A stretch of DNA of 64,000 nucleotides from Hyaloscypha bicolor E (Eukaryota; Ascomycota; Leotiomycetes; Helotiales; Hyaloscyphaceae): the NCBI RefSeq assembly GCF_002865645.1, contig NW_020194512.1, forward strand, positions 1,089,119 to 1,153,118, in the 5' to 3' direction. Positions 13,434-42,864 of the stretch are shown here, piece by piece (the first letter of the stretch is position 1; the number at the start of each line of letters is the position of its first letter). A program made the translations under genes and the position numbers. Under the pieces are notes generated by a model, which ran no database searches, had not been told where the DNA came from, and worked only from the letters and a program-made list of their open reading frames with translations.

Positions 13434-16400
13434 TATATATATATAAAGATTATAAAATAGGAAGTTATATTAAAATAATAAAAGAGTTAATTAAACTAAT
13501 TAAAAAATAGCTTAAATAAAATAAGAAACTTCAGGAAATAAATATATAGATTCTAATTAAATAAAGTAATTATACTAGCCCCAAATTAGTAATTCTTATT
13601 ATAATATATTTCCTAGAAAAGTATAATATTATATTATATCTATTTTATTTAATTAGAGAGCTTTAAAATAGCGAAAATCGTCTAATATATAAATTTTATA
13701 AAGGTATATTAATATTTTAAACCAAATAGACTTAATATATATTATTTTCTCAAATTACTAAATTTTAGAAAAGCTTTATATAAAGCTTACTTTTCTATTA
13801 ATACTAGAACCTCTAATTAAATTGCTTTTCTTTAATATTCTTTTAGAATTCTAAAAGAGTTCCCTCTTTAAGCTTCTAATTATTACAAATATAGCTTATA
13901 TTAGTTTTATTTCTTTTTATATTATTATTAAATTAATTCTGGCTTATAAATCCAAGATATTTTTAATTCAAAATATATTCTTATTTTATCTTTTACTAAT
14001 TTTAAATAATATTAAATAGCTTTTAATTATTAATATAAAGCTTATATTTAATAGAATATTAAGATTTAGATTCGTATTATATCTTCTAATACTTCTAGTA
14101 CTTTTTTACTAAAAATAAAAAAAGCTATAAAGAAATCTTATGCTTTTTATTTTATTTATACTAGTTTTAGAGAAATTTCTTATATAGATTACTATAAGTT
14201 CTCTATATTATTTAAAAGCTCGTTTTAACTTAATATAGTTTCTTTTATTCTAAAAAATAAAAGTAATAATTCTTATTATAATATTATTAATAGAAGTTTT
14301 TATTACTAAATATATACTTTTAGTTATTCTTATATTACTATTCCGATTTCTTATATCTCTATTATATAGCTTTTTCTTATTAAACTTCTAATTACTAGAA
14401 ATACTATAAGCTTCTTTTTCTTAATTCTTTTAAAACATTTATTTATTCTTAGATATTTTATTTATATTATATTTAAAATTACTGAATCTAATAAAGAAAA
14501 TAGTAATAAATACTTTTCTATTAATACTTAGACTAAAAAGAAAAAGTAATTTAATTAAATAATAGGCCTTTTATATAAGCTTATTAATACTATAATAGAA
14601 TGCCTTTAGATCTTTTACTATTAGCTTTTAAGCTTTATTATTTTAATAGATTTTATAAATAAAAACTATAAATAAAAGCCTCTTTTTATATTATGTAATT
14701 ATTTTAATCTTTATTTTAATATTCTAAAGATTTAATAAAGCTTTAAAGTTCTTGAATTTAAATCGGAATAGATTTTTTATAAGTTTATTTATAAATATAC
14801 TATTTATTTAAAGATAAATAATTTAAAAGATATCTTTATTATATTTTTAATATAGCTATATATTCTAAATATTAATATAATAGAGCTTTATAGTAATTCT
14901 TTTATTTTATCTAATAATTAGTTTAATAGTTTATTTATTATTATAGAATATAATTTAGAGCTTTCTAAGATCTAAGTATAGATTTCTAAATAATTTCTAG
15001 AAAGCTATAGTTTTCTTTATTATATAAATAATTCTATATATTTCTAATTTAGTTCAAGAAATAGTTATAGTATTTTATTAAATAGCTTTCTATAATATTA
15101 AATCTCTTAATAAAGAAATTATATATTTATAGTTTAATTATTATATATCTAGATTATTTATATATAAAATATTAGATATAATCTATAATTATATTTCTTT
15201 ATATTTTCTATTATATTAAAATACTAAAAACCGGGTTTTAAATAAGTATTAAAAAGCCTAATCTATAGTTATAAAGTATTCTAGAGCTGGGTTTATTAAG
15301 AACTAAAAGAATATTAAAGTAGTAAAAGCTATATTTAATCTAATTATAATTATAATATAAAATAATAATCTAATTTTCTTTTAATATATTTTAATTTAAT
15401 ATAAATAAGCCTAATTATTATATTTCTAAAAATTAATTCCGGGTAATAAAATACTAGAATACTTTCTATTTACTATCCTAAACCTTTTAATAATCTTCTT
15501 AATATAAATATTATAAACTAGATAAAGCTTTTTAGCTTTCTAATCTTTAATTATATAAATCCCTAGAAATTATTTTATATCTCGTATATTATAAAGCTCG
15601 TAAATTCTCTTAATCTAAATAATAATTAATTAAATATATATTTTATTATTCTTATAATAAAGAATTTAAAAGTTATTTATATAGAAAATAATAAAGATTT
15701 TATAATTTATATTTATATAAATATAGCGCTTTTTATTAAGTCTAAAGAATTTAATTCTTTTAAAAGTATTTATCTAATACTTATATTATTAAATAGAAGA
15801 GTCTTATAGCTTATATAGAGCTTGATTTACTTCTATTATATAGCTTAATACTTTAAAGCTATCTAATAGCTTATATATTATTATAGGCTTATTAAAATCT
15901 TTTTCTATATTAATAAATATATTTATAATATTAAATTACTTTATTTCTAGATTAAAATAAGCTATATTTATACTAGTTATTTAAAAGGCCTTATTACGAA
16001 TATAGTAGTATATATAAATCGAAATAATATCTTTTTTTAAAGATTTCTATAAACTATTAGCCTTTAGTAATACTAAGTAATATATTTATTAGAATTAATT
16101 TTATATATAAATATCTATTTTAAAGAAATTAGAAATATATTTGCTTTATTATTAGAAATAATTCTTTAGTAATTTCGAGCTCTAAAGTTATTAATTTCTA
16201 GTTTAATATTTGATTTAAAATACTTTTTAACTAGATATTTCTTTAGATTATTTTATATTTTTAGAACTTTTAGAAAATTATTAATATAAATTTTTCTATT
16301 ATTATATTATCTAGAGCTTTCTATTCTAGATATACTCTTAATTAAACAACTATTATAATTATAGTATAAATAGTTTTATAATTAAATTTCTTTTTATAAT

Positions 16401-17996
16401 TCTTTAATTAATTAGGCTAAAGAGATTCTAAAAAAACTTTAAGTAATTAATCTAATTTAATCTATTTATTATTTATAATAGTATATTTACTATAATAATT
16501 ATATTATTACTAGCTTTACCTGAATTACTATTTTAATTATTTCTTTTATATAAGTATATTTGAATTAGTTTATTTCTAGTTCTAATAATTACCTTTTTTA
16601 TTTATTTTCTTTTTAGCTTTACTATTTAATCTTCTATTTTAATTAAGCTATTTGCTTTTTTTTTATAAAGAATTCTTCTATTTCTATTAAACCTTTTACT
16701 TGTTCTATAAATAAGCTTTTTATTTTATTTATAAAAGCTTTTAGTAAACCTTATTATTAGTTCTAAGAAAGAATTTTCTTGCTTTTATTAGTTTAATATA
16801 TTTCCCTAATAGTTCTAATATATTCTATTATATTTCTTTCTATTATATTAAACCTTTTTAAAAGCTTAGTATTTTTATTTCTATTATTTCTAAGTTTTAG
16901 TATACTTTCTAGTTCTAAAATACTTTATAAAATTATAAGTTCTATTTCTAGTAAAGCTATAAAGCTTTTTATTTCTGAGTTATAATTTATTATTATACTT
17001 ATAAGCGCTTTTAATTATTAGTGTATTTATTTATTATTTTTTAGTTCAAGCTTATTTTCTATTTACTTTAATAAGCTATTATATTATAATTTCTTATTAT
17101 TAAAAATTAATTTAATATTTTAAATTTTATTTTCTAGAAATGATTCTATTATATTCTTTATAATTTCTATATAATAGCCTTTTATATATTTTAATTCTTT
17201 TTATAAAGAATATTTTTATTAAATATAATATTATATATAATAATTATTTAATTAAATATAAGAATCCAGATTTTATAAATATTAGATATAATATATCTAA
17301 TTAGATATCTAATATACTTTTTTATTCTATTTTACTTTATAGTTCTTAATTATTAAATATATTCTAGAATTATATATATAAATCTTATTTTAATTAGGTC
17401 TGAGATTAATTATTATTTATATTATAAGCTTTGAGTTATATTAATAGAAATAATTACGAAATTATAAATTAAATATTTTATTTAATGTTTTCTAGTTATA
17501 TATATATAAGAAATTCCGATTATATAAATAAATTATAGTTATAAAGCTTTCTAATTATAGCTTTTTAGGTAAATTAACTATTAAATATATTATAATAGTT
17601 TTATTTATAATTTCCTGTTTTATTTATTTAATACCATTATTTAGCTTATATATATATAAAGAAAAAAGTTTGATTTTAATATTTTACTTCTTTATTTAAA
17701 TCTAATAAACTAATATTTCTTAGATTAAAATAATAACTTTTTTTTAATTATATTTAATATAAGTAATTAAAAGATTATATTACTTATATATCTATTATTT
17801 AAAATCTCCAATTATATTAAATACTAGTAAAAAGAATTTATTTAGTAAAAGATATCAAAAGAACTTTTTATTAAATTCGTTTTTAATAATTAGAATCTAG
17901 CTCGAACTATTATAGCTATTTAAATAATTAAATAAGTTCTATAAGATTCTATAAAATAGTTAAATAAATTTTCTTTTAATTAGCCTATATAAGATT
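13434..17996 (-). mobile_element. Family B Ty1/copia copy B2, segment 1 (3' LTR and 3' two thirds)
   Basis: This is the left part of an old family B element on the minus strand. It opens with the 3' LTR (13434-13606), about 172 bp and matching the B1 LTRs in reverse complement. The interior is the reverse complement of B1 from about 24780 back to 20336. The reverse transcriptase YVDD box lies at 15672-15683 on the minus strand and reads YINN. The segment ends at 17996 with AGATT (17992-17996), the duplicated target of the B1 insertion; the element resumes at 24954. Summed over its four pieces, B2 is about 6.9 kb, close to the 6957 bp of B1. Confidence 0.85.
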
Positions 17997-18167
17997 TATT
18001 ACAGTGAGAATTACTGAATTGGGGCTAGTGCAATCGCTCCGCTTAATCAGGATCTGTATACTTACTTCCTAAAGCTTTATACTTCACTCAAGCTCTTTTC
18101 TAGCTAGTTTAATTAATTCTTTTACTATTTAATACAACTCCCTACTCTGTAATCTTTATATATATTA
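17997..18167 (+). repeat. B1 5' LTR
   Basis: 171 bp, starting TATTACAGTGAGAATTACTG and ending TTTATATATATTA. It differs from the 3' LTR at about ten positions, all of them transitions. The sequence right after it, GTTATAAGCCCGGCC, is in the primer-binding position; I could not identify the priming tRNA. Confidence 0.9.
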
Positions 18168-18359
18168 GTTATAAGCCCGGCCTCGTACTAATAAGCTTCC
18201 TAATTAGTATACTATAGAGAGTATTTAAGAACTTATTTAATTCATTTCTTCGAAAATCACACTTCAGTTTGCATTTCCGTTACTAACTAATTAATAGAAA
18301 CTATTCCTATAGTTCCTATAGTTTCCAAAGCTCAATTACAATTATATTAGAAGCTATAG

Positions 18360-21300
18360 TAAAGATTATTATCCTAAAGAACTGTAATTTCTGGGCGGAC
18401 TAGTTTAATACTCTCTGTAAAATAGCTAGTAATAAGAGTATCTGGGATAAGATTAATCCATTTAATAATAAAGTAATTAAAACGAATATAGCAGCTCTTC
18501 CCAGGCCTCTTCCTATAATTAATGAGCTTATACTAAAGGAAACAGAGAATTACTATACCAGATATTAAGTTAATACGGAAAATTAAGACAAAGATACTCG
18601 ACCTATAGTTAAGAAAGGATTAAAACCAGTATCTCTATAGCCTATAATATTCGGGGATATTAGAGATTACTATTCGGTACTCTTATAGAGCTATAAGATC
18701 AAGAAACTAGACTAGATAAATAAGCTAGTATATTACTATATAATTAGGTAGTAGCTCTATTAAATAGTTAATATAGAGATCCTTATAAACTCTACTCTAG
18801 AACTTAAAGAAAGTAAGCAAAGCTCTATTTATAAGGTTCTCAAAACATTATTAATAAAATATAGTTCTATAGATATAGTATAAATTACTACTGCTCGGAG
18901 AGTATATAGCTCGGTTTTACTATAAGTAAGCAAAGAAAAAATAAGTCCAAAGTACTAGTTTACTAATTAGGAAAAGGTATTTAATAAAGCCAGAACTCTT
19001 AAAATTGCCGAAATTAAAAGTACTCTAGTAGTAATTAAGTTCTTAATAGTCCTCTAGTAGAAACTCATACTAATCTGGGTAATAAAATAACTTAGTAATT
19101 TGTATAGTAAAAACGAATTAGGGCTTCTAATTCTTATATTTGAATAATATAGCCAGGTATTTAATCGGATTATTTTGGAAAACCAGAATACTAAATACTC
19201 AAGAGCTCCTATAATCTTTACTATATTCGGGAATCGAATTAGTAAAGAATTAGATAGCAAGCTTAATTCGGATAAGTATAAGTACTATAAGTACTCTTAT
19301 AAGAGTTCCAAAATCTATAAGTATAAATAAGACCTACTTAGCTATACTACTATAGAAATTACAATTACCGGATTAAATAAGACTTAAATAAAATTCAAGC
19401 CTAATAAGAAATAGATCAGAAAAATCCGGGAAAGGATCTTAACTAAATATTAGAAAGATCTAAAACCTTAGCTAAAAGAGAAATATAATATGAAAATTAC
19501 TAGTAGACGAGCTATAGAAAAGCTAATACCCGGTACTAGTTCCAAAAAGAAGCCTAAAATATCCGGAACCCAATTCCCTAGAAACTTTAATACTACTTTA
19601 GTAAATCCTATATTTATAATTCAGAACCCAGGTTAGGAGATATATATAATACTTGATTTCTTAAGATATCCGCTTTTTTAAAATACCTTATTAGATAACT
19701 ATAGTACTATATACCTGGTTAATAGTAAGAATCTAATTAATTCTAGTACTTTTATTAAAGCAAAAATTAATAATTATATAGAAGTAAGAATAACTAGTTT
19801 TCTAATTATTAGATATAGTACTTATATAATTAAAAACATAGTTAATAGACCTATAGAACTATATATTCAAGATCTAATTCTCTATAATATAATAGTTATT
19901 AAGGAGTTCTATATAAATATTATTTCCGAAGCTTGTCTAATAAAAAAGAAAGCTTAGTATTATAAATATAATCTTATAGTTAGACTAAGAGTTATAAAGA
20001 GAATATAGTATTAATATAATTAAAATATAGGTTTAATTTAGTTTTTCTTAAATATAAGCCGTTCTCTACTTATTTTAATATTCCGTTCAAAATTCCTACT
20101 AGTACTAGAAATATACTTATATTTCTAATACTCGAATATTTAATTAGAGCTCGATATAAGAGATTAAGGAAATATCTCAAACCAAGAAGTAATTCAGAAG
20201 AAAAATAGTATGCGAGAGTAAGGCATTTAGCCTATAAAGCTCTATAAAAGCTTATTAATTATATATATAATATAAAAATTAATAAACTAATAAGAATTAT
20301 ATACGAATTTTGTATTTAGGTATATACTAGGCAAGTAATCTCATATAGGCTAACTAAGAGAAAGTTTATTTAACTATTTTAGAGGATCTTATAGGACTTA
20401 TTTAATTACCTAAATAGCTATAATATTTCGAGTTGAATTCTAATAATTAAGAATAAATTTAGTAAAAAGCTCTTTAGATACCTTCTACTAAGTAAGGAGG
20501 ATTTAGTAGTATTTAATATAATTAGAAATTTTAAGTACTAGATATATAAGTAATATAACTTTTTAATTATTTATATTAAGTATAATTAGAAGAAAACAAT
20601 TATTCTAATCTAAGAAATATTAGCCTATTAGATCTGAGTAAAAGAAAAAGGCATTAAAATCGAGCTTTCTCTTTTATATATATATAAGCCAAATAGTAAT
20701 ATTAAGTAAATAAAACAGGAGATTATAAATAAGGCTATTATAATATACTTAATAGCTAATTTGCCTGAAAAGCTATAGCCAGAGAGCTCTATAGCCATAA
20801 TCTATCTCTATAATCAGAGCCCCTTATATATAAATTACTAGAGAATACTAAATAAAGTACTCGATTTATAATTCTATAATTATTTCTATTAATATAACCC
20901 AGAACTTATAGCTCAAATAATAATTAATCTTAGGCCTAATTAAAATGAAATCTATATATAGTTCTAGGGCATATTTAATAATTAAGAACTATAAAGCAAG
21001 ACGAAATAAGAGAGTATTTAAGGTTATATTATATAGATATATTAGATATTTAATTAGATATATTATATCTAATATTTATAAAATCTGGGTTTCTATATTT
21101 AATAAAATAATTATTATATATAATATTATATTTAATAAGAATATTCTCTATAAAAAGAATTATAAATATACTAAAGGCTATAGTATAGAGATTATAAAGG
21201 ATATAGTAAAATTACTTCTAGAGAATAAGATTTAGGATACTAAATTAATTTTTAAAAATAAGGAATTATAATATAATAGTTTATTAGAACAAACAGAAAA

Positions 21301-23640
21301 TGAGCCTAAACTAGGAAGTAATAAGTAACTGAACTAATAATTAAAAGAGCTTACAAATATACTAATAGGTTATAACTCGGGAATAGAGAGTTCTATAACC
21401 TTACTAGAAATAGGACTTATAACTTTATAAAGTATTTCAGAGCCAGAAAGTATACCAGAGCCTAGAAATAATAGAAATAAAGGTACTAAGCTCTTAAGAA
21501 GGCTTAGTACTATAGAGAAAGATATAATAGAATATATTAGAATTATTAGAGAAATATACTAAACTAATAAAAGCAGAAAAGAATCTTCTTAAGACTAGTA
21601 ATAAGGTTTACTAATAACTCCTATAAGTAAAGCAGGAAGCTTACTTATAGAATAAGCAGATAGCTTAATAGAAATAAGAGAATTCTCTATAAAAAGAATA
21701 AATAGCTTAGCTAAAATAGAAGATTAAATAGTAAAACCAAAGAGAAAATAAATAAAAAAGCCAATTATTAAAACCAGAGATAGGCTAATCTAAATATACT
21801 TATATAAGGGAAATAATTAGAATAGAGATCCAGATAAAGCTAGTAGTAATATAATTACTATAATAAGTATACTACTATAAATAATAAATAAATTAAATCA
21901 GATTAACTACTTAAAGTCTCTTTTAGAATCTCTCTGGCCTAATTAGCTAGAGAATTATAAGAAGGGATTTAATTACAAGACTATATATACTATAATTATA
22001 ATAATAGTTTAATTAAGAATATATCCAGAATAAAGTATTTCGAATAGTATAATAATAAGAAAAATTCATATTAATAATCTTCCGAAAGCTTTAAAGACAT
22101 GAAATAATCTAGAGAAATATTTAGTTAAAAAATACTTTAAATCAGATACTAAACTAGAGATTAATAATTTTAAAGCTTGAAATTACTAGAGAATTATTTC
22201 TAGTAATAAAGTAAGTATATTTCTAATTTCTTTAAAATAGGTATTTATATATAAAATCAATTCTAATAGATATATTACTTAGTACTATTTAAGGCTAATA
22301 GTTTATAAAGATTTCTAAAAGAAGATATTACTTTTGTCTATATATACTGCTATATTTATAGTAAAGTCTTTTCGAGTAGCTAGTATAATTATGGCTTATT
22401 TCAATCTAGAAATAAAGTAATTCAATATTATAAATATATTTATTAATATAGAAAAAAATTCTAATAGGCCTATAGTAATATATAAGCTATCGGACGGTTT
22501 TAAGATACCAGGCTATATAGTAGAGGTAAATCGAGCTCTATATAAGCTATAAGACTCTTTTACTCTATAGTATAAATACTAGACAAATACTCTTAAGAGA
22601 ATTAGATTCTCGGGACTTAATAAAGAGCCCTATATTTATATAAATATAGATTATGAAATCTTTATTATTTTCTATATAAATAACTTTTAAGTACTTTATT
22701 ATAAAGATAATAAAGCGCGTATTTAATTAATTATTACTCAGATTAAGATAATTTATAAGCTTTATAATATACGGGATATAGAATAGTTTCTAGGGATTTA
22801 TATAATTAGAGATTAGAAAGCTAAAAAGCTCTAGCTAGTTTATAATACCTATATTAAGAAGATTACCAAGAAGTTTAAAATAGTAAATAGGAAGTATTCT
22901 AATATTCTATTACCTGGAATTAATTTTCGAAGATATAGTAATTAAGCTTATCTATATTAAATTAAGGTATATTAAAAGAAAGTTAGATTACTACTTTATA
23001 CTATAATTATAATTAGACCGGATATAGCTTTTACTACTTTAGTACTCTTATAGTTTTTAATAAACCCTGCTCCAGAGTACTTTATAGCTATAGATTAGGC
23101 TCTTTAATACCTGTTTAAAACCCGGTTTCTAGTAATTTAGTATAATAGGAAATATAGAGAAATATAGCTATAGATTATATCTAATACTTTATATATAAAT
23201 AACCTAAATATATAATAATTAAGCCATAAATATATAATCTCCTTATTTAGAGGTTTAATATTATAAAAAGCCGCTTAATAAAGCTCTATAACTATCTCCT
23301 TAATTAAATCAGAAATATATAAGATTATTTATATAATAAAGGAAACTATAGCTCTCTAGAGGCTATTTAGGGATCTAAGCTTAGATCTTAGAGAGCTCTA
23401 GACTATATTCTATAATAATAAATAAACTATTTGACTAATTATTAGAGAGAATAAAAGAATTACTATAAAGCTTTATTATATTAATATCCAGAATATATAG
23501 CTATATTAAGAATATAATAAAGATATATTTCAAGTTATATATCTTTAAATAAGTAGTATACCTATAAACAGACTTATAAAAAATCTATTCCGATTTAAAT
23601 TCAAGAACTTTAGAACTTTATTAAATCTCTAAGATATTAG
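18360..23640 (+). pseudogene. B1 copia gag-pol polyprotein remnant
   Basis: On the plus strand a Ty1/copia polyprotein can be followed through many in-frame TAA/TAG codons. In order: a gag-like segment (about 18360-19600); a protease-like motif DNYSTIYLVN near 19694-19726, resembling the Asp-Asn-Gly-Ser-Thr protease site of fungal copia elements; the integrase and linker region, including the longest open stretch (20945-21235) with a motif of the type GYLVGYD..NIFRIW; then the reverse transcriptase with LYKLQDSF (about 22536) and the YVDD box as YINN (22673-22684). The RNase H region follows. The Asp-to-Asn changes and the stops make it non-functional. The start is approximate because the initiating Met was not fixed. 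Confidence 0.8.
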
Positions 23641-24782
23641 AATAAAAATAAAAATAATTAAATAATATAAAAAGAGGCTTTTATTTATGTCTTTTATTTA
23701 TAAAATCTATTAAAATAATAGAGCTTAAGAGCTAATAATAAGAGATCTAAAGGCGCTTTACTATAGTATTAATAAGCTTATATAAAAGGCCCTTTACCCG
23801 ATTAGACTACTTCTCATTTCTATTAATAGCCTCTTAAATCTTATTAGAAGAGCTCTTATTACTATTTTCTTTATTAGATTTAGTAATCTTAAGTATAGTA
23901 TAAATAGAGTATCTAAGAACAGATAAATGCTTTAAAATAGTCAGAATCTATAAAAAAGAATTAAGAAAAGAGAGCTTATAATATCTTTAGTAATCGGAAG
24001 TTCTATAAAAAAAAGCTATATAATAGAAATATAAGAGATTAGAATAGTTAAATAAGAATAACCAGAAGTATACTTCTAGTAACGAGAACCTCTATTAATA
24101 GTATTATAGCAAGAACTATTACTCTTGTCCTTTAGAGCAAATAAGACTATATTAAGTCAAAACGAGCTTTGAAATAGTATAAAGAACTTATAATAACCCA
24201 TATAAGGGATCTCTCTAAGACTAGTATAAGTAGAACAAGAAATATAAGGCTTTAGAATAGACTTCTTTATTTTTAGTAAAAAGGTACTAGAAGTATTAGA
24301 AAACGTTATAGAAATCTAAACCTTAATATTTTATTAAAAGTAAGCTTTATATTAATAGTTAAGAGCTATACTTACAGCGGACTTGCAAGCTACTTAATAC
24401 TATTTAAAAGTTAATAAAAAATAAAGCAAGAATATATTTTGGATTAAAAATATCTTAGATTTGCAAGCCGTAATTAACTTAATAGTAGTATAAGAAGAGG
24501 TAGAAGCCATATTTATAATAATCAGAAGCTTAGGAAGGGATCTCTAGAAAGATATTAAAAAAAAGCATTTAATTAAAGGCTCTAGAATTAGTAAAAAAGG
24601 GGGTTTTATATAGGATTCCCCTGGAATTCGGTAATCTGAGTAAATAATATATACTAAGCCTATTTGGATTAGAATATTAATACGGCTTTATAAAACCCAT
24701 ATATTAAATGAATTTCGCTATTTCAAAGCTCTCTAATTAGGTAGAACGGGTAGAATATAATATTATACCTTCCTGGGGAATA

Positions 24783-24953
24783 TATTACAGTGAGAATTAC
24801 TGAATTAGGGCTAGTATAATTGCTCCGCTTAGTCAGAATCTATATACTTACTTCCTAAAGCTTTATACTTTACTCAAGCTCTTTTCTAGCTAGTTTAATT
24901 AACTCTTTTACTATTTAATACAACTCCCTATTCTGTAATCTTTATATATATTA
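24783..24953 (+). repeat. B1 3' LTR
   Basis: 171 bp, same length and termini as the 5' LTR. A purine-biased stretch containing CTGGGGAATATA lies immediately upstream and is the likely polypurine tract. AGATT follows at 24954-24958. Confidence 0.9.
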
Positions 24954-25287
24954 AGATTACTTGCCTAATATATATCTAAATATAAAATTCATATATAATT
25001 CTTATTAATTTATTAATTTTCATATTATATATATAATTAATAAGCTTTTATATAGCTTTATAGGCTAAATACTTTACTTTATATATTATTATTTTTTGAA
25101 TTATTTCTTAGCTTGAAATATTTCTTTAATTTGTTATACTAAGCTCTAATTAAATATTTGAATATTAGAAATATAAGTATATTATTAGTATTAATAGGAA
25201 TTTTAAACGGAATATTAGAATAAATAAAAAGCGGCTTATATTTAAAAAAACTAAATTAAACCTATATTCTAATTATATTAATACTAT
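24954..25287 (-). mobile_element. Family B copy B2, segment 2
   Basis: Continuation of B2 after the B1 insertion. It is the reverse complement of B1 from about 20335 back to about 20010 (gag-pol interior). It ends in ACTAT (25283-25287), which recurs at 25457-25461 after the solo LTR insertion. Confidence 0.85.
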
Positions 25288-25457
25288 TATAGTAGGGAAT
25301 TAGGTAACGGGTCACGTGACTAGTTAGATACTCTCGGCTATTTATTACTTCTATATATAGCTTTCTTCTTTTTTCCTTTTCTTTTTTCTATTAAAATAAT
25401 ATATTCCGAATATTTAAGTTTTTAATATATTTTAATATTCCTATATATCTCTCTTTA
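25288..25457. mobile_element. Solo LTR of an otherwise unseen retrotransposon
   Basis: An insert of about 170 bp that interrupts B2, which is co-linear on both sides. It starts TATAGTAGGGAATTAGG and ends ..CTCTCTTTA, and is flanked by ACTAT (25283-25287 and 25457-25461; the outermost A is shared, so the duplication is 4 or 5 bp). It contains GGGTCACGTGAC, a palindromic CACGTG site. The length, TA..TA termini (from TG..CA) and short duplication fit a solo LTR left by recombination. No full-length relative is present in the window. Confidence 0.7.
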
Positions 25458-26673
25458 CTATATTTTCTTTATAATCTCCTAGTCTAATTATAAGATTATA
25501 TTTATAATACTAAGCTTTTTTATTTATTTAGTAAACTTCGAAAATAATATTTATATAGAATTCTTTAATAATTATAATATTATAAAGAATTAAATTTTTA
25601 GAATATAGTCTTATAAATCTATTAATTATATAAATATTATATAAATATTATATTTAATAATCGGAAAACTAGTTATTTTTATTTTTATTTTTATTTTTAT
25701 ATAATTATTAATTTTCGCTTTAATAAAAGTACTAGAATTAATTAGATTCTTACTATTAACTAGAAATATAATATTATAATTATTTAATAAGGTATTCTAA
25801 AAAATCAAATATTTTAAAAAATCAAGTATTATATAGATTTCTTAATTCGAGCTCTAAATTATAAATATTAGATTTATTAAAATAATATTAAAATTTCTAG
25901 AATATTAGATTCCGGATATTTTAGGCTTTTTTTTGAAACTAGTACCGGATATTAGTTTCTCTATAGCTTATTTACTAGTAATTTTTATATTATATTTCTT
26001 TTCTAGCTAAGGTTTTAGATTCTTCTAATATTTAGTTAAGAGTCTTTTCCGGATCTTTCTAATCTAAATCTTATTAGGCTTGAATTTTATTTAAGTTTTA
26101 CTTAATTCAGTAATTATAATTTCTATAATAGTATAGTTAAGTAAATTCTAGTAATATTTAAAGTTTTTGGAATTCTTATAAAAATACTTATAATATTTAT
26201 ACTTATTTAAATCGGATTTATTATCTAATTCTTTACTAATTTAATTCTTAAATATAGTAAAGATTATAGAAGCTTCTAAATACTTAATATTCTGATTTTC
26301 TAAAATAATTTAATTAAATACCTGGTTATATTACTCGAGTATAAGAATTAAAAGCCCTAGTTTATTTTTATTATATAAATTACTAAGCTATTTTATTACT
26401 CAAATTAGTATAAGTTTTTACTAGAATACTATTAAGAACTCGATTATTACTAGAATATCCTTAATTTTGGCGATTTTAAAAGCTCTAGTATAATTAAGTA
26501 TCTTTTTCTAATTAATAAACTAATATCTTGGGCTTATTTCTTCTTTACTTATTTATAATAGAACCGAGCTATATATTCTTCAAATAATAGTAATTTGTAT
26601 TATATTTATAGAACTATATTTCATTAATAAAGCTTTAAGAACCTTATAAATAAAATTCTATTTATTCTTTTTA
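25458..26673 (-). mobile_element. Family B copy B2, segment 3
   Basis: Reverse complement of B1 from about 20000 back to about 18830 (gag and protease region). It is interrupted at 26673/26674 by the pogo-like element; B2 resumes at 37738. Confidence 0.85.
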
Positions 26674-26757
26674 ATAGCTAATATCCCTCTTATATACTTT
26701 ACTTATAGTCAGAATAAGCAAGTATCTCGTTTAATCAAGTATCCTATTAAGAAAATA
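26674..26757 (+). repeat. pogo-like element left terminal inverted repeat
   Basis: It reads outward to inward ATAGCTAATATCCCTC.. then GTCAGAATAAGCAAGTATC... It pairs with the right repeat with many C/T and G/A differences, this side being the more AT-rich. Confidence 0.85.
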
Positions 26758-27085
26758 CAGGCCCTAAAATTTACATATAATTCTTATTAAAAAACACGTT
26801 TTATAATTATGTATTTGGCCTAACTTATTAACTAATTTATTATTTAATTCATATATAAAGATTCCAAAAATAGATATATCTTTATTTAATTTTACTAGAA
26901 TTAGAGAGATATCCTGGAAGTATTTCTATTATTTATATACTACGGAAGCTAATTACTACTATATCTTTAATAAGGTCTGCAAATAGTACCTTAAAAATAA
27001 TAATAATTCAGTAATTACTACTACTAGAATATATTATATTAAAGAAGCTTCTTTGCGAAAATTAGTATTCCGCAAGTATAATAAG

Positions 27086-27352
27086 TATTACGGGTACGGT
27101 ATTTAGGGCTTAGAAAGCAAGATAGAAGGTCTCTTACGAAGACGATTCAAAGCTAAAGAAGAGAAAACTAGAATACAAGAGGCTGCGAGGGAGTATATAC
27201 ACCCCATAGTATACTAGTCCCGAAGGGGCTTAGCCTTCTAAATATCTCCAGTATATTCCAAGCATGCTTTCCTAGCGAGGCGGCCGCATTATATATATCT
27301 AGGAGGCATCTGGGGAGGCATCTCAGATGCCGGATATCTGGGAATCGTAATA
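27086..27352 (-). repeat. A3 3' LTR (GC-rich, little mutated)
   Basis: 267 bp. It contains GC-rich stretches such as GAGGCGGCCGC and the palindrome GGCATCTCAGATGCC. It is much less AT-rich than its partner at 33508-33774, with which it differs almost only by transitions. Confidence 0.9.
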
Positions 27353-27419
27353 TTACTTCCCCCTTCGGAATAAGCTCGTCCCCGAGCTTTGTAAAAGCCA
27401 TTAATCTATCTAATTTCGT

Positions 27420-30400
27420 ATTATTCTCCTTCCCAAAGTAAAACTAGTATCTCGGATATAGATATTATATACGAAAGGCCGGCACCTTTACTATATGACC
27501 TAGAAGGATTTATTATTATTTCCGTATAATTCTGGACAAGTATTATTTTTTATATAGTCTAGCCAGTATTACAGGTTTTATAGAGATCCTGATATATTAA
27601 TATTATTATTATAGAAACTCTATAAAACCAGGGGGCTATTACTTAGTACCGAAGCTAGATATTATACTAGATCTTTATTCTAACTAACCTATTGAATTCT
27701 ATACTTTAGCCTATTTCTTATTGGCTTAACTATAATAACCCGTTTAATGCCGTACTCTTATTTACTATCCTCTAGTATTAATAGAAGCGGTTCCGGATTC
27801 GCTTGACCTAGTAAAGGATTCTGGGAGTCTTTTCATAGCTTCTCTATATAGAAAACTAGGTATATCTTTATGGTTTCTGGTAGTTTTAGGAGAAATGAAT
27901 AGCTATACTATTCTAGAATCTCAAATAGGTTCTCTATTTAGTTTCCTAGCTTCCGGCTCGGATAATCGGATTTCTAGTACTTTATAGTAACCTATATTTT
28001 ATTCCTAACTTTGAAATTAATTAGATAGTAGTATTTATTAACTTATATTATATATTATTTCTATATGTATTCTATATAGCCTTAGGCAAGTTACTATAAT
28101 TTATATAATTAATTTACTAATACTTTAGCTTTATTTCTATTTAGTTTCTTTTTAGGTAAGTTAGCTTTAATAAAAGAGTTCTAGTCTAGAGAAATATAAG
28201 GTTTATAGCCCTTTTTAGTTATAAATAGGGACTAGCTAATAGTTTTATACTAAAGAGAGGCTTATTAATAATTAATTATAATAATCTATTTGTTCTAGTT
28301 ATCCTAGTAATAGTTAATATATAAGTATAATCTCTAATTAAAATACTAATTAATAATCTCTATTTATCCGTCTATTTAGAGATAATTAGCTATAGAGAGC
28401 TTGAGCTTTATACTAATTCTCGTATAGAATTCGCTCTAAAAATCAGATATAAATTAGGGTCTCTAATCTAATATAATTATTTCTGGAATACTTACTTGAT
28501 ATATTATATAGAATAAAAATAGAGGTATTAGCTACTTGGCTATAATTATATCTTATACGGGAATTATAATTAGGTACTTAGATAAGTAATCTATAAATAT
28601 AATAATTATATTATGGCCCAATTTATTTTCTAGATAGCTCTTAAAATCTATAATAATATATTATTATAGGTAATTAGAAACTAGAAAGAAATAAAGCAAA
28701 CCAGGCTTCTTATCTCTAGATATATATAATCTTTTATAAATATAGTAATTATTATAGTATTAATTAATATCCTTATTTATAGATAGCTAGTAATATTACT
28801 TCTTTAATAGCTAATAGAGCTTTATATATCCAAGATATCTAGAAAGGGATTTATTATATACTTTATAGATTAGGGCAATTCATAAAGGTAATCCGGGAGT
28901 TATTTTATTCTCTATAATATAAAGTCTTTTATAATATAAAAAGAGGCCGTCTTATAATATCCAGATATTATTTTTGGCTTGGGCTATTATATATAGCTCT
29001 TCTAGATCTAGTAATATATAATTATCCTATAAGGTCTTATTTATAAGTTATAAACTACTATATTCGGCGGGAGCCTCTAATAATACTTCTATAAGGGCTA
29101 TTATAGCAAAGTTTACTAATAAAGCTTCTAAGAAAATACCTTTTTCTAGAGGAATTATATCTCTAATAGGAATATTCTCTTTCGGAAAGTCTTTAGTATA
29201 TACTTGGTTTTTAGGACCAAATTCCGGATTAAGTAAGCTAACCTTATAGAATATTACTATAAACTATAAGTTATAAATAATCTCCGGATTAATCTTATCT
29301 TTAAAGAGAAGTATTTGAGTTTATAGCTTCTTCTTAATTTAGCCCTAAATATTTACTTTGTTTTATTTTTATAATAAAGTATTTATTTACTTATTTAATT
29401 TTCTAGAATAATATATAAACTTAAAGTAATAATAGGATAAGAGCTTAGCCTATCTAGCTTATTAAGAAGAGAGCTTCTTAGTAATTATAAAGTACTTCAA
29501 GATATAGTAATTAGAATAGACCTTAAAGGAAATATCCTAAAAGCCTTCTAGCTTAGCTTTCTATTCCTCTAATACTCGTATTATAATAAGTATTTCCTTA
29601 TTATATATATTATAATTAAGTTTTACTAGAAGTATGGTTTTAGAAAAATAAGCTATAGGATATTAAAGACCTATTTCTGGGTCTTATTAAGAGAGTAAGC
29701 TAGTAATTATTTCTTTAAATATATCTGTTTTTACTATTATAGGCAGATCTGGATTATAGTATTATAAAACTAGAATAGAAATCATAGCTTTCTTTAAGTA
29801 AATAAAAGCCTCTTGGTATTACTTAAACTATTTAAAGGAAATATCCTTTTTTATAAATAAGATAAGAGGTCTAGTAATTCGTTTATATTCTTTAATAAAG
29901 TATCTATAAAAGTTATAGAAGCTGAGAAAGAACTATATACCCTTAACTATTTTTGGGAATTACTAGTTATATATTATTTTGACTCTATTAGAATCTACTT
30001 TAATACCAGATATAGAAATAATAAAGCCCAAGTACTTTATATATATAACTTTAAATTCCGATTTCTTAATATTTATTTAGAGGCCAGTAAGATATAAGTA
30101 GTCTAATATCTTTTATATATACTATTTGTACTTTACTAGATTCTCTAAATAAATGAGAATATTATTAAAATATATTATATAAAAGTTATTTAGATACTTA
30201 AAAAATATATTATTTATATAATATTAATATATAGCCGGGCTATTTATAAGGCCTTTTTAGAGAATATTATATTTATATACTTTATAGTAAATACGGAATA
30301 TTATTAGTTCCTAAAAGTCCGGGTCTATAGCTATATAATAGAAGGTTTAACGGATATTTAATTTAGTATAGATCTTGGCTTTAGATAATTAATTTAAAGT

Positions 30401-33400
30401 CTTATTAATAAGTAAAAGGAAATATTAATCTTTCCGGGTAATATTATTTAAATAGTAGAAATTAATATAAAAGTATAAACCTCTATTTGCTTTCTTTATA
30501 AAAAGAACTAGTAAAATAAAGAGAGCCTAACCAGGTTTAATAAAGCCTTTAGCTAGATTATTTTCTAAGAAATACTTAATTTCTAGAAGCTCTTAAATAG
30601 ACTACTACCGGAGGAATTAGTATCTAATATTCTTAGTTTCTTTTAGGCCTTTAATCTAAATCTTATAATTATATAATTTATAGAGGGAAAGAGTATTAGA
30701 TTTCTTTTTAGAGAAAACAGAAGTATATTTCTTAAATTCCGAAAATAATATTCTTTATAGCTATTAAAGCTCTATTTCTTCCGATTATTAATTCTCTAGG
30801 CTAGAAATAGCTTCTCTTTTCCGAGCTTTAAGCTTTTTATTAATCTTATAAATAGAGATTTAACTAATAATATTATCTTCTTTCTTGGCTATATAATTAA
30901 ATACTATAGAAGTAAGAATAGCTAGGTTTAATATTTACTTTCTATTAAGGATCTCTTTCTATTTCTTTAGCTTTTACTTAGGTATTATATCTTAATTAGG
31001 CTATAAAAGCTTCTTTTTTATAGTCTTATATAATTTCCTCTAATTAGTCCAAAAGAAGAAAGATTACTTAAGAATAGAAGGTTTCTAGAAATAGCTTATA
31101 ATAAAATCTCGTTAATTAGTATCTTTTTAATATTTCTTATTAGGTTATTTCTCTAGCTATTACTAAAAAGTACTAATAATATAATTGAATTATATAGATT
31201 TAGGCTTATTCTTTAGCTATATAAGCCTATATCTTCTATAGTTAACTAGAATATTAATATATACTAGTTATTTTCTATTAAGGATAATATTATAATTTCT
31301 AAGATTTAGGATAATTATAAATATATTAATACTTTATCTATTAATTAGAAATAAGACTTCTATATATTTCTTAGTAAACTTAGCTAGCTTTCTATTAAAA
31401 CCGTATATAGTATAGGATAAGAAAAGGAATTATAGTTCTATTTCTAAGAATTACTTTATAAGCTAAATAAGCTTTATATTAATAAAAATATAACTATTAG
31501 CTCTAGTATTAATAAGGGAAGAAGACTTGATTTCTAATTTATTTATACTAATAGTATAGGATATTATAAGAGTATTTTCTCTAATTAGACAAATTAAATT
31601 AATTTCTACCAAATCTATATTACAAGTTTCTAAAATAAAGACTTTCTTTAGAGATACTTATTTCCCGGTTCTATACCAGAATTAGAACTCGAATTCTCCG
31701 AATACTTTATTAGAATAATATATTCTAATAAAATAGAAACTAAGTCCGGCTTAATTCTAGAAAGAGCTACCTTAATTTCTTTACTATATAGAACCGGATA
31801 ATATCTAATATAATAGCTAAATTTGTTATAGTTAAAATACTTAATAATTAAGAGATTTTTAGTTTTTATAGGATATTACTTATACTTATAAGGAAATATA
31901 TACTTAATAAAAGTAATTAATATAGGCTCCTTAAGCTTCTCTTTAGAAATATACTTCTTAGAAATATATAGAAATATAGTATTAGAAGTAAACTTGGCTA
32001 GAATAGCTCTTGCCTTTTTATATTCCTTAGTCTTCTTATATATAGCCTTAATTTACTAATTATTAGTAGTATAGTACTAAGTAAAGCAACTAGTATTAAT
32101 AGAAGAATTATTATAATATATATATACTAATTCCTAAAGCTTTAATAAGAGCTTCTTATTTAATTTATATTTAATATCTTAAAGACTAATACTACCTTCT
32201 ATAGATAATTATAAGAAGAAAATATAGAACTCCTGAAATATTTAACTAGAATATATTTAAAGTTTACTAAAGTTATAATAAGTATTCTATATCTTATTAG
32301 AATTAGAATATAGCTTCTTTAAATAAAAGTAGAATTCTGAGAGCTAATAATACTAATTCGGACTATCTTTATTTATATAAGAGTTAGTTAGGACAAGAGT
32401 ATTACTGGTAAGTTTATTAAAAATATAAATAATCTTGAGATTCTCTAAAAAATATAAATTAGTATTTCTTTATAGCTTATTATTAATCTAAACTAGCCAG
32501 TTATTAAAGATAGTATAATTTCTAGTAAAGAAAGTTAGATCTGGGAGCTTAGTAACTCTAGTATTTCTAAAGAAAATATAAAATATAAGAGATCCTAGAT
32601 AGAAATAAGCAGGAGATAATTCGGAATTCTTTTAAGAGAAATTTAGAATAGCTAAACAGGTAAAGCAGAAATAGTTAGAGCTACTATAAGCCGATCTACT
32701 ATAGCTATATAGTATTTGAGATTATCCTCGAGCTTAGTATTATAGAGCTTAGTATTCTCGAGAATAGCTTTATTATAACTATAGGTATTCTTATATAAAA
32801 TAGCTTTTTAGATATTTTCCTAGTAGCTTTTTATAATAATATTAATATCTAAAAGCAAGGTATTAGGTTTCTTAGCCTATTTATATAACTCTTCTATAGT
32901 AATATAGTTATTAGTTTCTAGAAGCTTTATAATAAAAGCAGAGAGTTCTATTTCTATAAACTCGTCTATAAATTCTCTAGGAATACTAATAGGATATTTG
33001 GTTCGGAAAGAGCTACTAATGAAATGACCTGAACTAGTAAGAGCTTTATTAGAAGCCTTAGCAGAAGTTAATATAGTTCCTGGTTATATAGTATTTTGAG
33101 AAATTAATCTATTATACTTTTTCTCTATTATATTCTCTCTAGTAATCTTATTACCGGTATATATATAGGGCCTATAAGGTTATAGGATAGGGCTTGAGGA
33201 TAGTAGTTAGGTTACTGGCCTATATATACCTATTACTTTAGAACTTAGTTAAAGAATAGCCTTTATTTGAGGTTCTTTAATTTTCGGGTTTTCGGAAAGG
33301 GTTTCTAATATACTACTAGTATATATTTATAAAGATATAAATACCTGGTTTTTCTGAGGATTCTAAAGCTTTTTGCTTTTATTATTCTGGAATCTATTAC
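27420..33400 (-). pseudogene. A3 Ty3/gypsy gag-pol remnant
   Basis: On the minus strand, gag lies to the right (about 31000-33400) and pol to the left. A degraded zinc-knuckle is readable near 31800-31850, with Cys and His replaced by Tyr or Phe. The reverse transcriptase YLDD box is at 30161-30172 and now reads YFNN, followed by ILIY as expected for the motif. Integrase should lie between about 27500 and 29500 but was not resolved motif by motif. No frame is open for more than a few dozen codons, so the protein is not made. Confidence 0.75.
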
Positions 33401-33507
33401 TCGTATTTCTGAGGTTCCGTTATCTTAATAGTACCTATATTACTAATAGTTCTAAATTAGTTTATTTGAAATCCTTTATAGGATTAAAGAAAGTAAGCTT
33501 TAAATAT

Positions 33508-33774
33508 TATTATAGGTATAGTATTTAGGGCTTGGAAAGTAAGATAAAAGGTTCCTTATAAAGACAATTTAAAGTTAAGGAAGGGAAAACTAGAATACAG
33601 AATACTATAAGGAAATATATATATCCTATAGTATATTAGTTTTAAAGAGGCTTAGCCTTCTAAATATCTCTAGTATATTTCAAGTATACTTCCCTAGTAA
33701 GGCGGCTGTATTATATGTATCTAGGAGACATCTAATAAGGTATCTCAGATACCGGGTATCTGGGAATTATAATA
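33508..33774 (-). repeat. A3 5' LTR
   Basis: 267 bp, the same length as the 3' LTR, more AT-rich. It is followed by ATAAG at 33775-33779. Confidence 0.9.
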
Positions 33775-35311
33775 ATAAGAAAAGGAATTTCTAAGAACTC
33801 TATAATATATATAATAGTAATAATAAGATCCTAAATAAGGTATAGGAAAAAGCAATTAGGTAATATTACTATAAGTAGTAAAAGGCTAGTTTAGGGGCTA
33901 TATATTAGATAATTTAAGCTATAATTATATATTTAAAAGCTATAAATATACCTTCTAAATTAAATTATTTAGCTAATATAAATAGGCTAAATCTCTTTTA
34001 AAACTACTACTTTTAGCTAGCTAGTTTAGTATATAGATACGGAATTATAAGATATTTTATATAATTAAAATAAAGCTAATTATATATATATAACTCGAAT
34101 CTTATATAAAAAAGAATATTAGAATATAATTTTAGAAATATTATAATATTCTAGAGAAGCTTTATATTATAAAGGAAAAGAATATTTTGAATATAAACGA
34201 GTTAGAAGTATATATTAGTTACCTTATTAGTAAGTATATAATTATATTTATAGAAGTAAAAGAGCTATATATAGCTAGCCCTGAGAATTATAAATTAGTT
34301 ATAATAATTGAAACTATTTATATAGATAGTTATAAATCTCTTTTACTATTTATAATTGTTTCTAGAAAGAAGATTATAAATAATTAGGTATTAGAAAACC
34401 TAATTGAAATAGAATATATTAAATATATATCTATCGGATATATAAATAATAATATAGCTATAAAATACCTCGATTATTTAATTAAGTATTTAAGAGCTAG
34501 GCTAGATAAATCTTAGAAAATTCTCTTTTTAGATAGTTACGAATCGCACGTCTATAAACTATTTTAATTAAAGGCCGGGGAATATAATATTAAGCTATTC
34601 TAGTTTCCCTCTCACTTAATATATATTCTTTAATTACTTAATATTAGTATATTCTGCTTCTAGAAATACTATTATAAAATAGCGATTTATATAGCTCTCT
34701 GTTTCCTTAATTTTGAATATATAATTACTTCCTTTTTCCGTGATTTTACTCTAATTCATATATAAATAATATAAAAATATATAATTAAGAATACCTTTAA
34801 GAGCTCTAGTATATAGCCCGTTAGTTATAAAGCTAGAATTAAAAAGATGCGATTATATGAAAAGAAGAGATTAATTAAGGAGGTTAAGGTAAAGGAGAGT
34901 TTAGATCTTCTCCCTTTATTACTTATTTGCCCTAATAAAGTATAGAATATAGCTATAATCCTTAGAGTACTTGCAGATTATAATTCTACTATATTTTCAG
35001 AAAATTCGAAGGAAACTTGGATAGCTATAGTTAAAAAGATTAATATCTAACTATAAAAGAGTTATCTCCAGATAATAAAATACCAGGCTCTCTAAATAAA
35101 GCTTTATAAAGAATATAATTATAAGGCGAAGTCTCATAAAAGCTTATATAAAGGAGGGCTATCTGCTAGTATAATAGAGCTTTGTATAGAGATTAAAGTG
35201 AAGAAGGAGAAAGATAATAGAAAAGCTCTTTATAAGGCTAAAAAGAAGCTCGCTAGTACTATAAATCGAGCTAAAAATTAGCTCAAGGACGCCGGGATTT
35301 AAGCTTGCAAG

Positions 35312-35578: not shown

Positions 35579-36788
35579 CTACTTCCGGCGTCCCCTATCC
35601 ATGCGATCCACTAGTTCCTGATATGCCAGTTCCTCCAAATCTGAATCTGAATCTGAATCAGGGCCATAGGGTCCAATTAAGTAATCAGAATCGTAGCCAC
35701 CATCAGAATCATAGCTACTATTAGAATCATTAACCATACAGATTCTGACTTTTCTACCGTTCTCACTTACTATAACCTTTGGTCCTGGCGAAGGCATCTT
35801 CTTTCCTGTTTCCTTGTATGGTTAAATATCATAGTCCTGTACCTAGTATTCACTACTGCCATAGCATACACACTTGCCCTGCTTGCGAAGCAATTGGCGC
35901 TCTGCCGGGGATATAGATCGTGCTCGACTGTTCGTATGGAAGGGAGAGGATGGTCGTGGAGGAAAGCATCGTGGAGAGGAGGGTCTCGGTTTCGTAGAAG
36001 GAGAGGAGGGTCGCGGAGGCTTGGTAATCGCACTAATGAATGGTATTAATAGTTAATATGTCCATGGTATCGTGTGAATAGTAAGGCTTCTTCTCAGAGT
36101 CGCGAACTAGATATTCGTATATACTAGAGCGTCCAGCCAGCTATTATACTATCTCGATGAACTTGGTATAGGTTCGAGGGAGGTTTAATTACTATACTAG
36201 TCTGTTCTTGATCGTAGTATTGAGTCCTTAACAAAAGGCTGTAATCTTATTAATATTGTTCTAGTCTTGTCTACGTGCCTCGTACAGAATTCGCTCAAAC
36301 TTAGCTATAAAAGCATGAAGCGAATTAGTGCCTTGCTTAAGAGAGTATAGCTTGTCCTCTGCTTCCTGCATCTTATTCGGATTCGAGTAAACGCGAGAGA
36401 GTTAGTCGAGAATCGAGAGGTAGGACCAGGTTTGATCGTCTTTAGCCTGGGAAAGCTAAGGAAGAACCATGGCTTGAACGTAAGATTCGAGATTCAGGTA
36501 GATATAGTAAAACTGAGCAGTGGCATCGCTAATAGCCTCGCAATTGACTCGTAGCTTGGCTTGAATTGAGGGGAGCCAGGTGTTAAACTTGTGGACTTGG
36601 CCATTGAATTTTTCGGGATGTGGAAGGGAGGGTTTCGGCTTTGCGTTTGTAGAAGAGGAAGGGGAGGAGTGAGTTCGTAAGAGGACAAGCTTATTGCCTT
36701 GTTACTAAATAATCTCAGCCTGTCTTCGTACCTCCGTTTAAAGCTCGGCAATCGCAGTGGCGATCTGAATCTGCGAAGGTTACTCCAT
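35579..36788 (-). pseudogene. Ty3/gypsy gag remnant of the non-autonomous element
   Basis: Starting at an ATG (36786-36788, minus strand), a gag polyprotein can be read through about ten TAA/TAG codons that sit where Gln or Trp is expected. The central part contains PEKFNGQVHKFNTWL and, further on, LYSLKQGTNSLHAFIAKFE, which is the usual retrotransposon gag pattern of a capsid domain with Trp-containing helices. Near 35830-35880 the frame shifts, and a degraded CCHC zinc knuckle is visible (GKCVCYGSSEY). The C-terminus (35579-35730) is an Asp/Ser-rich acidic tail, SDSDSDLEEL, that is still open. No protease, reverse transcriptase or integrase motif follows before the LTR. Confidence 0.8.
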
Positions 36789-37147: not shown

Positions 37148-37652
37148 GCAAGGATGAGAAAGCTAGACTAGTTAGAATCATAGAGTATTAACTAAAGGAT
37201 AAGCTAATTCTAGTAGAGGATATGGTATTAATTCGCAAACCTAATAAATACCCTATAATTATTAAACGAGCTTGCTATAAGGACTTTTACCCTGATTTAT
37301 AGCTTATAGTTCGCCAGCTTACGGCATCCCTTAGTAATCTAGCCCCCGATTGGCTAGACGCACTAAATACCTTTATTAATATTAACGGGGATAAGGATAT
37401 AGTAATTAATACTACTAAACGGAAGCATTAAAAGAAGAGAATAGGAGAATATATAGACTCAAGTTTGCTTTCCCTTATTATTTCAGACTCTTCAGATATG
37501 GAGAGTAATACAGGCTTAATTAATAGTATATAAGCGAATGCCGATTTTGTATAATTCTAGATAGCTTTGTATTTTTTGTAACTAGTATCCTTAAATTCCA
37601 TTGCAAATATGCTTGATTTTGTATGCAATGCGTACCAAAAATCAAGAATCGG

Positions 37653-37737
37653 CTAAAATCTCGATGGGATACTTGGTTAAACGAGACACTTGCTTATCCC
37701 GACTACAAGCAAAGCACATGGGAGGGGCACCGGCTAT
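37653..37737 (+). repeat. pogo-like element right terminal inverted repeat
   Basis: The less mutated of the two ends: inward to outward ..TCGATGGGATACTTGG.. GCTTATCCCGACTACAAG.. GGCACCGGCTAT. It pairs with 26674-26757. Confidence 0.85.
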
Positions 37738-38547
37738 TAAGTCTTAAAGTAAAATTCATAAGAATTTCTATATTAACTATTTAATAGAGCTACTATCTAA
37801 TTATATAGTAATATACTAGCTTATTTATCTAGTCTAGTTTCTTAATCTTATAATCTTATAAAAATACTAAATAGTAACTTCTAATATCTCCGAATATTAT
37901 AGGCTATAGAAATACTAGTTTTAATTTTTTCTTAATTATAAATCAAATATTCTTATTTTAATTCTTTATTTTAGCTTGGTATCTAATATAGTAATCTTCT
38001 GTTTTCTTTAGTATAAGCTTATTAATTATAGGAGAAGGCCTAGAAGAAGCTATTATATTTGTTTTAGTTACTTTATTATTAAATAAATTAATTTTATTTC
38101 AGATATCTTTATTACTAACTGCTTTATAGAAAGTATTAAACTAGTTTGCCTAGAAACTATAGTTCTTTAGAATAATAATCTTAACTATAGCTTCTAATAT
38201 AATTGCAATTAAGCTTATAGAAATTATAAAAGCTATAGAAATAATTCCTATTAGTTAGTTAATAATAGAAATATAAACTAAAGTATAATTTTTGAAGAAA
38301 TAATTAAATAAGCTTTAAATACTCTTTATAGTATACTAATTAGAAAGCTTATTAGTATAAGGCCGGGCTTATAACTAATATATATAAAGATTATAAAATA
38401 GAAAGTTATATTAAAATAATAAAAGAATTAATTAAACTAGCTAAAAAAGAGCTTAAATAAAGTATAAAGCTTTAGGAAATAAATATATAGATCCTGACTA
38501 AGTAAAGCGATTATACTAGCCCCAAATTAGTAATTTATACTATAATA
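37738..38547 (-). mobile_element. Family B copy B2, segment 4 with 5' LTR
   Basis: Reverse complement of the first 800 bp of B1 (about 17997-18800), resuming B2 exactly after the pogo-like element. The 5' LTR occupies 38376-38547 (172 bp). The TTATAAGCCCGGCC primer-site position of B1 is also present here in reverse complement, at about 38361-38375. Confidence 0.88.
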
Positions 38548-42793: not shown

Positions 42794-42864
42794 TCGAAAA
42801 CTCAGCATTCTACTGCTATCTATTGGTCCGTAAGTTCTCTGCTGACTTTTTTCAACGGAGATAG

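What the first reader, a model, noticed from the sequence alone, without database searches (positions are those of the whole stretch)
13434..38547. Transposon nest resolved to base level: retroelements inside a pogo element inside a copia
B2 (copia, minus) is interrupted by B1 (TSD AGATT), by a solo LTR (TSD ACTAT) and by a pogo-like element. The pogo element is in turn interrupted by A3 (TSD ATAAG) and by a gag-only LTR element (TSD GCAAG). Removing the inserts restores a B2 of about 6.9 kb and a pogo of about 2.5 kb. This gives a relative insertion order independent of RIP-distorted divergence.
Basis: seen in the sequence. Interest (0 to 1): 0.75.

Follow-up and report, generated by a model that had tools for sequence, protein, structure and literature searches.

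The report
Nested transposons in a mycorrhizal fungus

Summary
The window lies on contig C1 of an 82.0-Mb assembly; contig length and a partial protein identify it as Hyaloscypha (Meliniomyces) bicolor E, Helotiales. A 6.9-kb copia element (B2) is split by B1 (5-bp TSD AGATT), a 169-bp solo LTR (ACTAT) and a pogo-like element (TA). The pogo is split by gypsy-type A3 (ATAAG) and by a 1.8-kb gag-only LTR element (GCAAG). Aligned piece by piece, with no splicing, the B2 pieces are co-linear with B1 and with 7 other B copies. The pogo pieces run on in 15 of 15 near-complete copies. LTR identity gives the wrong order (A3 79.8%, B2 87.8%). Transversions agree with nesting (B2 5/172; A3 2/267; gag-only 1/182; B1 0/171), though B2 against A3 alone is not significant. 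Nesting gives only a partial order. Added here: C-to-T/G-to-A loss along the pogo falls from about 0.4 to 0.07 and runs on across the gag-only site, while the insert shows little, so it probably arrived after the pogo was mutated. Nested TE clusters and RIP are known in fungi: a new locus of a known kind.

The parts
13434..17996 (-). B2 copia, 3' portion (left LTR to B1 insertion site)
   Evidence: 82.3% to B1, co-linear 3-4617
17997..24953 (+). B1, copia of the same family inserted in B2; LTRs about 17997-18167 and 24780-24953; TSD AGATT
   Evidence: RVT_2 homology at 22216-22891
24954..25287 (-). B2 second piece (begins with TSD copy AGATT)
   Evidence: 87.8% to B1 4613-4949
25288..25456 (.). 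solo LTR, TSD ACTAT, of a short (1.8 kb) LTR-element family
   Evidence: 22 genomic matches, two pairs about 1.64 kb apart; matches both LTRs of L069 at 81% and 79%
25457..26673 (-). B2 third piece (begins with TSD copy ACTAT; ends with TA)
   Evidence: 82.3% to B1 4945-6128; continues at the last piece in 7 B copies
26674..27085 (+). pogo-like element, 5' piece with left TIR
27086..33774 (-). A3, gypsy-type LTR element inserted in the pogo; LTRs about 27086-27355 and 33505-33774; TSD ATAAG
   Evidence: RVT_1 homology at 30017-30496
33775..35311 (+). pogo-like element, middle piece (begins with TSD copy ATAAG), transposase-coding remnant
   Evidence: 15 near-complete relatives; protein relatives with PF03184
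35312..37147 (-). gag-only LTR element inserted in the pogo; LTRs 35312-35493 and 36966-37147; TSD GCAAG
36459..36701 (-). in-frame gag-like piece of the gag-only element (81 aa)
   Evidence: 98% over 77% of the query to a partial protein annotated in Hyaloscypha bicolor E; Pfam DUF4939 only at E 0.18
37148..37737 (+). pogo-like element, 3' piece with right TIR (begins with TSD copy GCAAG)
37738..38547 (-). B2 last piece: 5' part and right-hand LTR (begins with TSD copy TA)
   Evidence: 83.6% to B1 6148-6957

Best explanation
This is a stack of ordinary transposition events, each cutting into the one below, in a genome with strong RIP-type C-to-T mutation. A copia element (B2) inserted first and was heavily mutated. 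Later a second copia of the same family (B1), a short LTR element that recombined to a solo LTR, and a pogo/Fot1-like cut-and-paste element each entered B2. A gypsy-type element (A3) and a 1.8-kb gag-only LTR element entered the pogo. Shown: all five insertions, their TSDs, the continuity of the interrupted elements, and the order B2 before B1, solo LTR and pogo, and pogo before A3 and gag-only. Inferred: B2 had been mutated before the pogo arrived; the pogo was mutated before the gag-only element arrived; the gag-only element depends on another element's enzymes. Not resolved: the order of B1, solo LTR and pogo, and whether A3 came before or after the pogo was mutated.
For: TSDs and ends. Pieces run on in relatives. 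Transversions in LTR pairs: B2 5/172, A3 2/267, gag-only 1/182, B1 0/171; B2 against the other three pooled 5/172 v 3/620, Fisher p 0.014. GC by layer: B2 pieces 0.146-0.197, B1 0.242, pogo pieces 0.228/0.235/0.351, A3 0.253, gag-only 0.449. Pogo loss in 300-bp bins .38 .39 .43 .35 .27 .21 .15 .11 .07, running on across the gag-only site, while the first 400 bp of the gag-only insert lost 4 of 168 against 28 of 141 in the 400 bp of pogo to its left (p 3e-7) and 17 of 140 to its right (p 0.001). The pogo end beside B2d lost 4 of 60 although B2d has GC 0.198 against 0.299 in the matching part of B1.
Against: B2 v A3 transversions alone are not significant (p 0.12). The gag-only loss is measured against 8 relatives that are themselves mutated, which biases it low; its later bins reach 0.16. 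Part of the pogo's 3' decline may be a property of the family: 2 of 12 other copies show a significant decline, 10 do not, and the two most mutated copies, L010 and L019, also fall at the 3' end. Across 12 copies asymmetry does not correlate with flank GC (rho -0.27, p 0.40). A3's left 0.9 kb is less mutated than its right part, which simple spreading from A3 does not explain. B2's own TSD is not clean.
Confidence: 0.95

Rival explanations
1. Part of the nest was copied or joined by ectopic recombination or an assembly error rather than built by successive insertions.
For: The families are multi-copy here. In the junction search two other places align across the B2/pogo boundary at 76-79% (C48:180090 and C1:3462269; not followed up).
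Against: Every junction has a TSD of the right length and the pieces continue in relatives at the expected base or within a few bases. Of 40 scored matches to the B2/pogo junction (of 52 candidates) only the window matches 1-120; 35 stop at or just past the boundary on the B side and 2 cover only the TIR side. The contig is 4.49 Mb.
Confidence: 0.03
2. The gag-only element is as old as A3 or older and simply escaped mutation, so no order between them or against the pogo's mutation can be drawn.
For: Transversion counts do not separate A3 and gag-only (2/267 v 1/182). Patchy mutation is seen in A3 itself, whose left LTR kept most C/G (8 v 44 AT-ward changes).
Against: The pogo on both sides of the insert carries more loss than the near end of the insert, and the gradient runs on across the site. 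The insert's interior GC (0.44) is equalled by L042 (a partial copy) and exceeded only by L041 (0.46) among the 22 family loci listed, the window's own included.
Confidence: 0.3

Closest known systems
Nested TE clusters of Mycosphaerella graminicola (Zymoseptoria tritici), PMC4522978 (abstract excerpt and passages seen)
   Same: LTR element as base, primary insertions with 5-bp TSDs, lowered GC and RIP; 78 putative clusters, 7.5-63 kb
   Different: Here the DNA-transposon layer itself carries two LTR inserts, and the order is checked with transversions and a loss gradient
Copia families of Meliniomyces bicolor, PMC5445492 (passages seen)
   Same: Same species; the paper names it as enriched in both FunCo1 and GalEa copia clades
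   Different: The clade of B was not determined. Directly after the B 5' LTR neither the FunCo1 PBS nor the GalEa 9-bp motif quoted in the paper is present; the GalEa-type string CTAATTAGT occurs 32 bases further on in B1 but reads CCAATTAGT in the B-like locus L090, so it is probably chance
Fot1/pogo DNA transposons (name recalled)
   Same: TA TSD, TIRs, relatives with DDE_1 (PF03184)
   Different: Coding region broken in the window; Pfam did not hit the fragments tested
TR-GAG non-autonomous LTR elements of plants (search listing only)
   Same: LTRs plus a gag-type ORF, no room for pol
   Different: Fungal; gag ORF broken here; mobilising partner not shown

Membership tests
Ty1/copia (B1, B2) | RVT_2 reverse transcriptase in the element | tested here: met
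   L070 and L071 (2 of 3 fetched RVT_2 hits, of 84) match B1 22216-22891 at 89% and 88% and B2 15466-16141 at 86% and 82%
Ty1/copia (B1, B2) | paired LTRs and 5-bp TSD | tested here: met
   B1 LTR pair 94%, AGATT; B2 LTR pair 88% but its TSD is not clean
Ty1/copia (B1, B2) | integrase upstream of reverse transcriptase | not tested
   no integrase search was run on B
Ty3/gypsy (A3) | RVT_1 reverse transcriptase in an element with LTRs and TSD | tested here: met
   L077 matches A3 30017-30496 at 71% DNA and 66% translated; TSD ATAAG. Domain order not tested, so gypsy type rather than a placed clade
pogo/Fot1 | TA target duplication and terminal inverted repeats | tested here: met
   window ends; TA next to the TIR at both ends of 12 of the 14 copies printed, read by eye (L011 3' end and L019 5' end did not resolve)
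pogo/Fot1 | DDE_1 transposase | tested here: inconclusive
   no DDE hit in Pfam on the fragments scanned and no relative in the PDB, but 29 of the 76 protein relatives of the 193-aa piece carry PF03184
TR-GAG-like non-autonomous LTR element | LTRs, TSD, interior too short for pol, replicated as such | tested here: met
   interior 1,472 bp and TSD GCAAG in the window; LTRs bracket interiors of 1,412-1,515 bp at 14 of 22 family loci, the window among them; TSDs could be read by eye at only 3 of those (L039, L040, L045)
TR-GAG-like non-autonomous LTR element | gag domain | tested here: inconclusive
   DUF4939 E 0.18, below cut-off; gag-like wording and a zinc-knuckle-like stretch read by eye

The most novel reading that the evidence does not exclude
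The gag-only element belongs to a replicating, pol-less LTR lineage in Helotiales that borrows a gypsy-type partner. Parts of its LTR and its LTR end with the polypurine region resemble those of family A. Its little-mutated copy caps a nest whose lower layers were mutated earlier, so nests like this could date RIP episodes relative to single insertions.
Probability: 0.4. Interest if true: 0.45.

Novelty: new member of a known kind. Interest (0 to 1): 0.3.

Why it matters
In genomes with RIP, LTR identity is a poor clock. Here it would place A3 before B2, in which A3 is twice nested. The locus is a compact worked example of how nesting, transversions and the spatial pattern of mutation can be combined to order insertions and mutation episodes.

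Tried and rejected
Family scans of single open pieces gave no DDE, RVT or gag hit above cut-off (Pfam; NCBIfam), and the PDB search gave only an unrelated E 0.77 match; class was settled through genome-wide family searches and relatives instead. A half-tRNA-Met primer site for B was considered because the post-LTR sequence looked like one (recalled); 31 exact matches to the motif were found, some of them beside listed B copies, but none of the 5 loci given to ARAGORN held a tRNA gene, so it is dropped. Flank composition as the cause of asymmetric loss in pogo copies: no correlation. A TSD for the two-LTR relatives of the solo LTR was not clear at either of two places. Spreading from A3 as the sole source of the pogo gradient was weakened by the plateau that runs on across the A3 site and by L010 and L019. 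For the loss counts 12 pogo copies were the yardstick; L010 and L019, the most mutated of the 14 aligned, were left out, and putting them back with a 50% threshold gave nearly the same gradient; L026 was not used. Literature: no paper with all of the terms LTR retrotransposon, gag only, non-autonomous and fungi.
Full report
What the window is. The window is C1:1089119-1153118 of an unnamed 82.0-Mb, 76-contig assembly. C1 is 4,491,146 bases. An 81-aa gag-like piece of the window matches, at 98% over 77% of the query, a partial protein annotated in Hyaloscypha bicolor E whose contig has the same length. The genome is therefore almost certainly H. bicolor E (Meliniomyces bicolor), Leotiomycetes, Helotiales.

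Observation. Self-alignment of the window shows the B1/B2 relation, the A copies and the LTR pairs. Five insertions have perfect TSDs at exact element ends: B1 AGATT, solo LTR ACTAT, pogo TA, A3 ATAAG, gag-only GCAAG. Two random 5-mers of this region match with frequency 0.0049. B2 minus its inserts is about 6.91 kb and the pogo about 2.53 kb.

Continuity. Instead of splicing out the inserts, each piece was aligned on its own. The four B2 pieces fall on B1 at 3-4617, 4613-4949, 4945-6128 and 6148-6957. In 7 other B copies the pieces are likewise next to each other (exceptions by best piece are listed in the observation check). Of 29 pogo loci examined 15 match nearly all of the middle piece; in these the three pieces are contiguous to within 5 bp at both sites in 15 of 15, with an overlap of exactly the 5-bp TSD at the A3 site in 12 and at the gag-only site in 10. 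The other 14 loci are partial or broken copies and bridge the sites only in part. A 120-base query over the B2/pogo junction matched in full only at the window. Of the other 39 scored matches 35 stop at or just past the boundary on the B side, 2 cover only the TIR side, and 2 cross it at 76-79% (those two were not followed up).

What the parts are. Of 84 RVT_2 matches in the genome three were fetched; two match B1 and B2 over practically their whole length and the third does not match the window. B is copia. Five RVT_1 matches were fetched of 150 scored. One (L077) matches A3 and another A copy, three match a different element at 55.6-56.1 kb best, and one (L074) matches A3 and that element only at protein level. 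The pogo has TA next to its TIRs at both ends of 12 of 14 printed copies. Its 76 protein relatives include 29 with PF03184 and named ones from Golovinomyces, Rhynchosporium and Choiromyces. Pfam itself did not hit the pogo fragments. The solo LTR has 22 genomic matches, including two pairs about 1.64 kb apart; the pair fetched (L069) has LTRs 85% alike. The gag-only family has LTRs bracketing interiors of 1,412-1,515 bp at 14 of 22 loci examined, the window included. Of 40 listed matches to its LTR eight without a listed interior beside them were fetched; 7 of the 8 are solo LTRs with perfect 5-bp TSDs (L079 is the exception). Parts of its LTR and the LTR end with the polypurine region resemble those of A3 (75% over 56 and 88% over 42 bases).

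Order. Raw LTR identity is 94% (B1), 88% (B2), 80% (A3) and 95% (gag-only); taken as a clock it would make A3 older than the B2 that contains it. Most differences are transitions. In A3 44 of 52 transitions are AT-ward in the right LTR, and in the pogo TIR pair 18 of 18 are AT-ward in the left TIR. Transversions are 0/171, 5/172, 2/267 and 1/182, which agrees with nesting, though B2 against A3 alone is not significant (p 0.12; against the other three pooled p 0.014).

A gradient in the pogo. At 848 sites where at least 60% of 12 other copies hold C or G, the window has lost 229 by transition. Counted along the uninterrupted pogo coordinate the loss is .38 .39 .43 .35 .27 .21 .15 .11 .07 per 300 bp. 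The difference between the first and last 850 bp, 0.27, exceeds that of all 12 other copies (-0.04 to 0.13). The curve runs on across the gag-only site, yet the insert itself lost 46 of 683, and 4 of 168 in its first 400 bp. The simplest reading is that the pogo was mutated before the gag-only element came. That the 8 gag-only relatives used are mutated themselves lowers its count. The curve also runs on across the A3 site, so whether A3 came before or after the pogo's mutation is open. Two of the 12 other copies show a weaker decline in the same direction, and the two most mutated copies, L010 and L019, also fall at the 3' end, so part of the decline may belong to the family. The pogo's right end is nearly clean although it abuts heavily mutated B2, which suggests that B2 had been mutated before the pogo arrived.

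Literature. Nested clusters with LTR bases and 5-bp TSDs are described in M. graminicola (PMC4522978, abstract excerpt and passages seen). RIP leaking from repeats into neighbours, in proportion to proximity and to at least 930 bp in Neurospora, is discussed in PMC2973834 (passages seen), and leakage in Cladosporium fulvum in PMC9453070 (passages seen). M. bicolor is named as enriched in copia clades in PMC5445492 (passages seen). None of the passages seen describes this locus. The searches that name the species were made; their listings were seen, and of the papers listed only PMC5445492 was opened.

Verdict. The finding is right and carefully made. It is a good example of a known kind of structure, with a modest addition on relative timing.

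Noticed in passing
window 27086-27950 against 33505-33774: A3 is unevenly mutated: its left LTR and the next 0.6 kb keep more C/G than its right part (8 v 44 AT-ward changes in the LTR pair; GC profile).
   Followed up: partly
window 41000-44100: An island of 47-49% GC with broken open frames reading like an alpha/beta-hydrolase N-terminal protein (by eye) and a 386-aa open frame; no Pfam hit to any of the three frames scanned there.
   Followed up: partly
window 50920-60781: Probably another LTR element: direct repeats 50920-51217 and 60484-60781 (94%) around an RVT_1 region at 55649-56125 that is 87-92% identical to three other genomic RVT_1 hits.
   Followed up: no
L050 and L052 (C70:2400605-2403622): Two gag-only-family interiors in tandem, separated by one LTR-sized stretch, as expected from LTR-LTR recombination.
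   Followed up: no
window 35312-37147: A partial protein model of H. bicolor E (P0077) matches this gag-only element: a transposon fragment annotated as a gene.
   Followed up: partly
window 11942-12155 and 45383-45737: Inverted self-matches (imperfect palindromes of about 0.2 and 0.36 kb, 66-71% identity) in very AT-rich DNA.
   Followed up: no
L010 (C62:2086799): The pogo copy closest to the window's (90%) has a dome of mutation with spared ends and no insert between its three pieces.
   Followed up: partly
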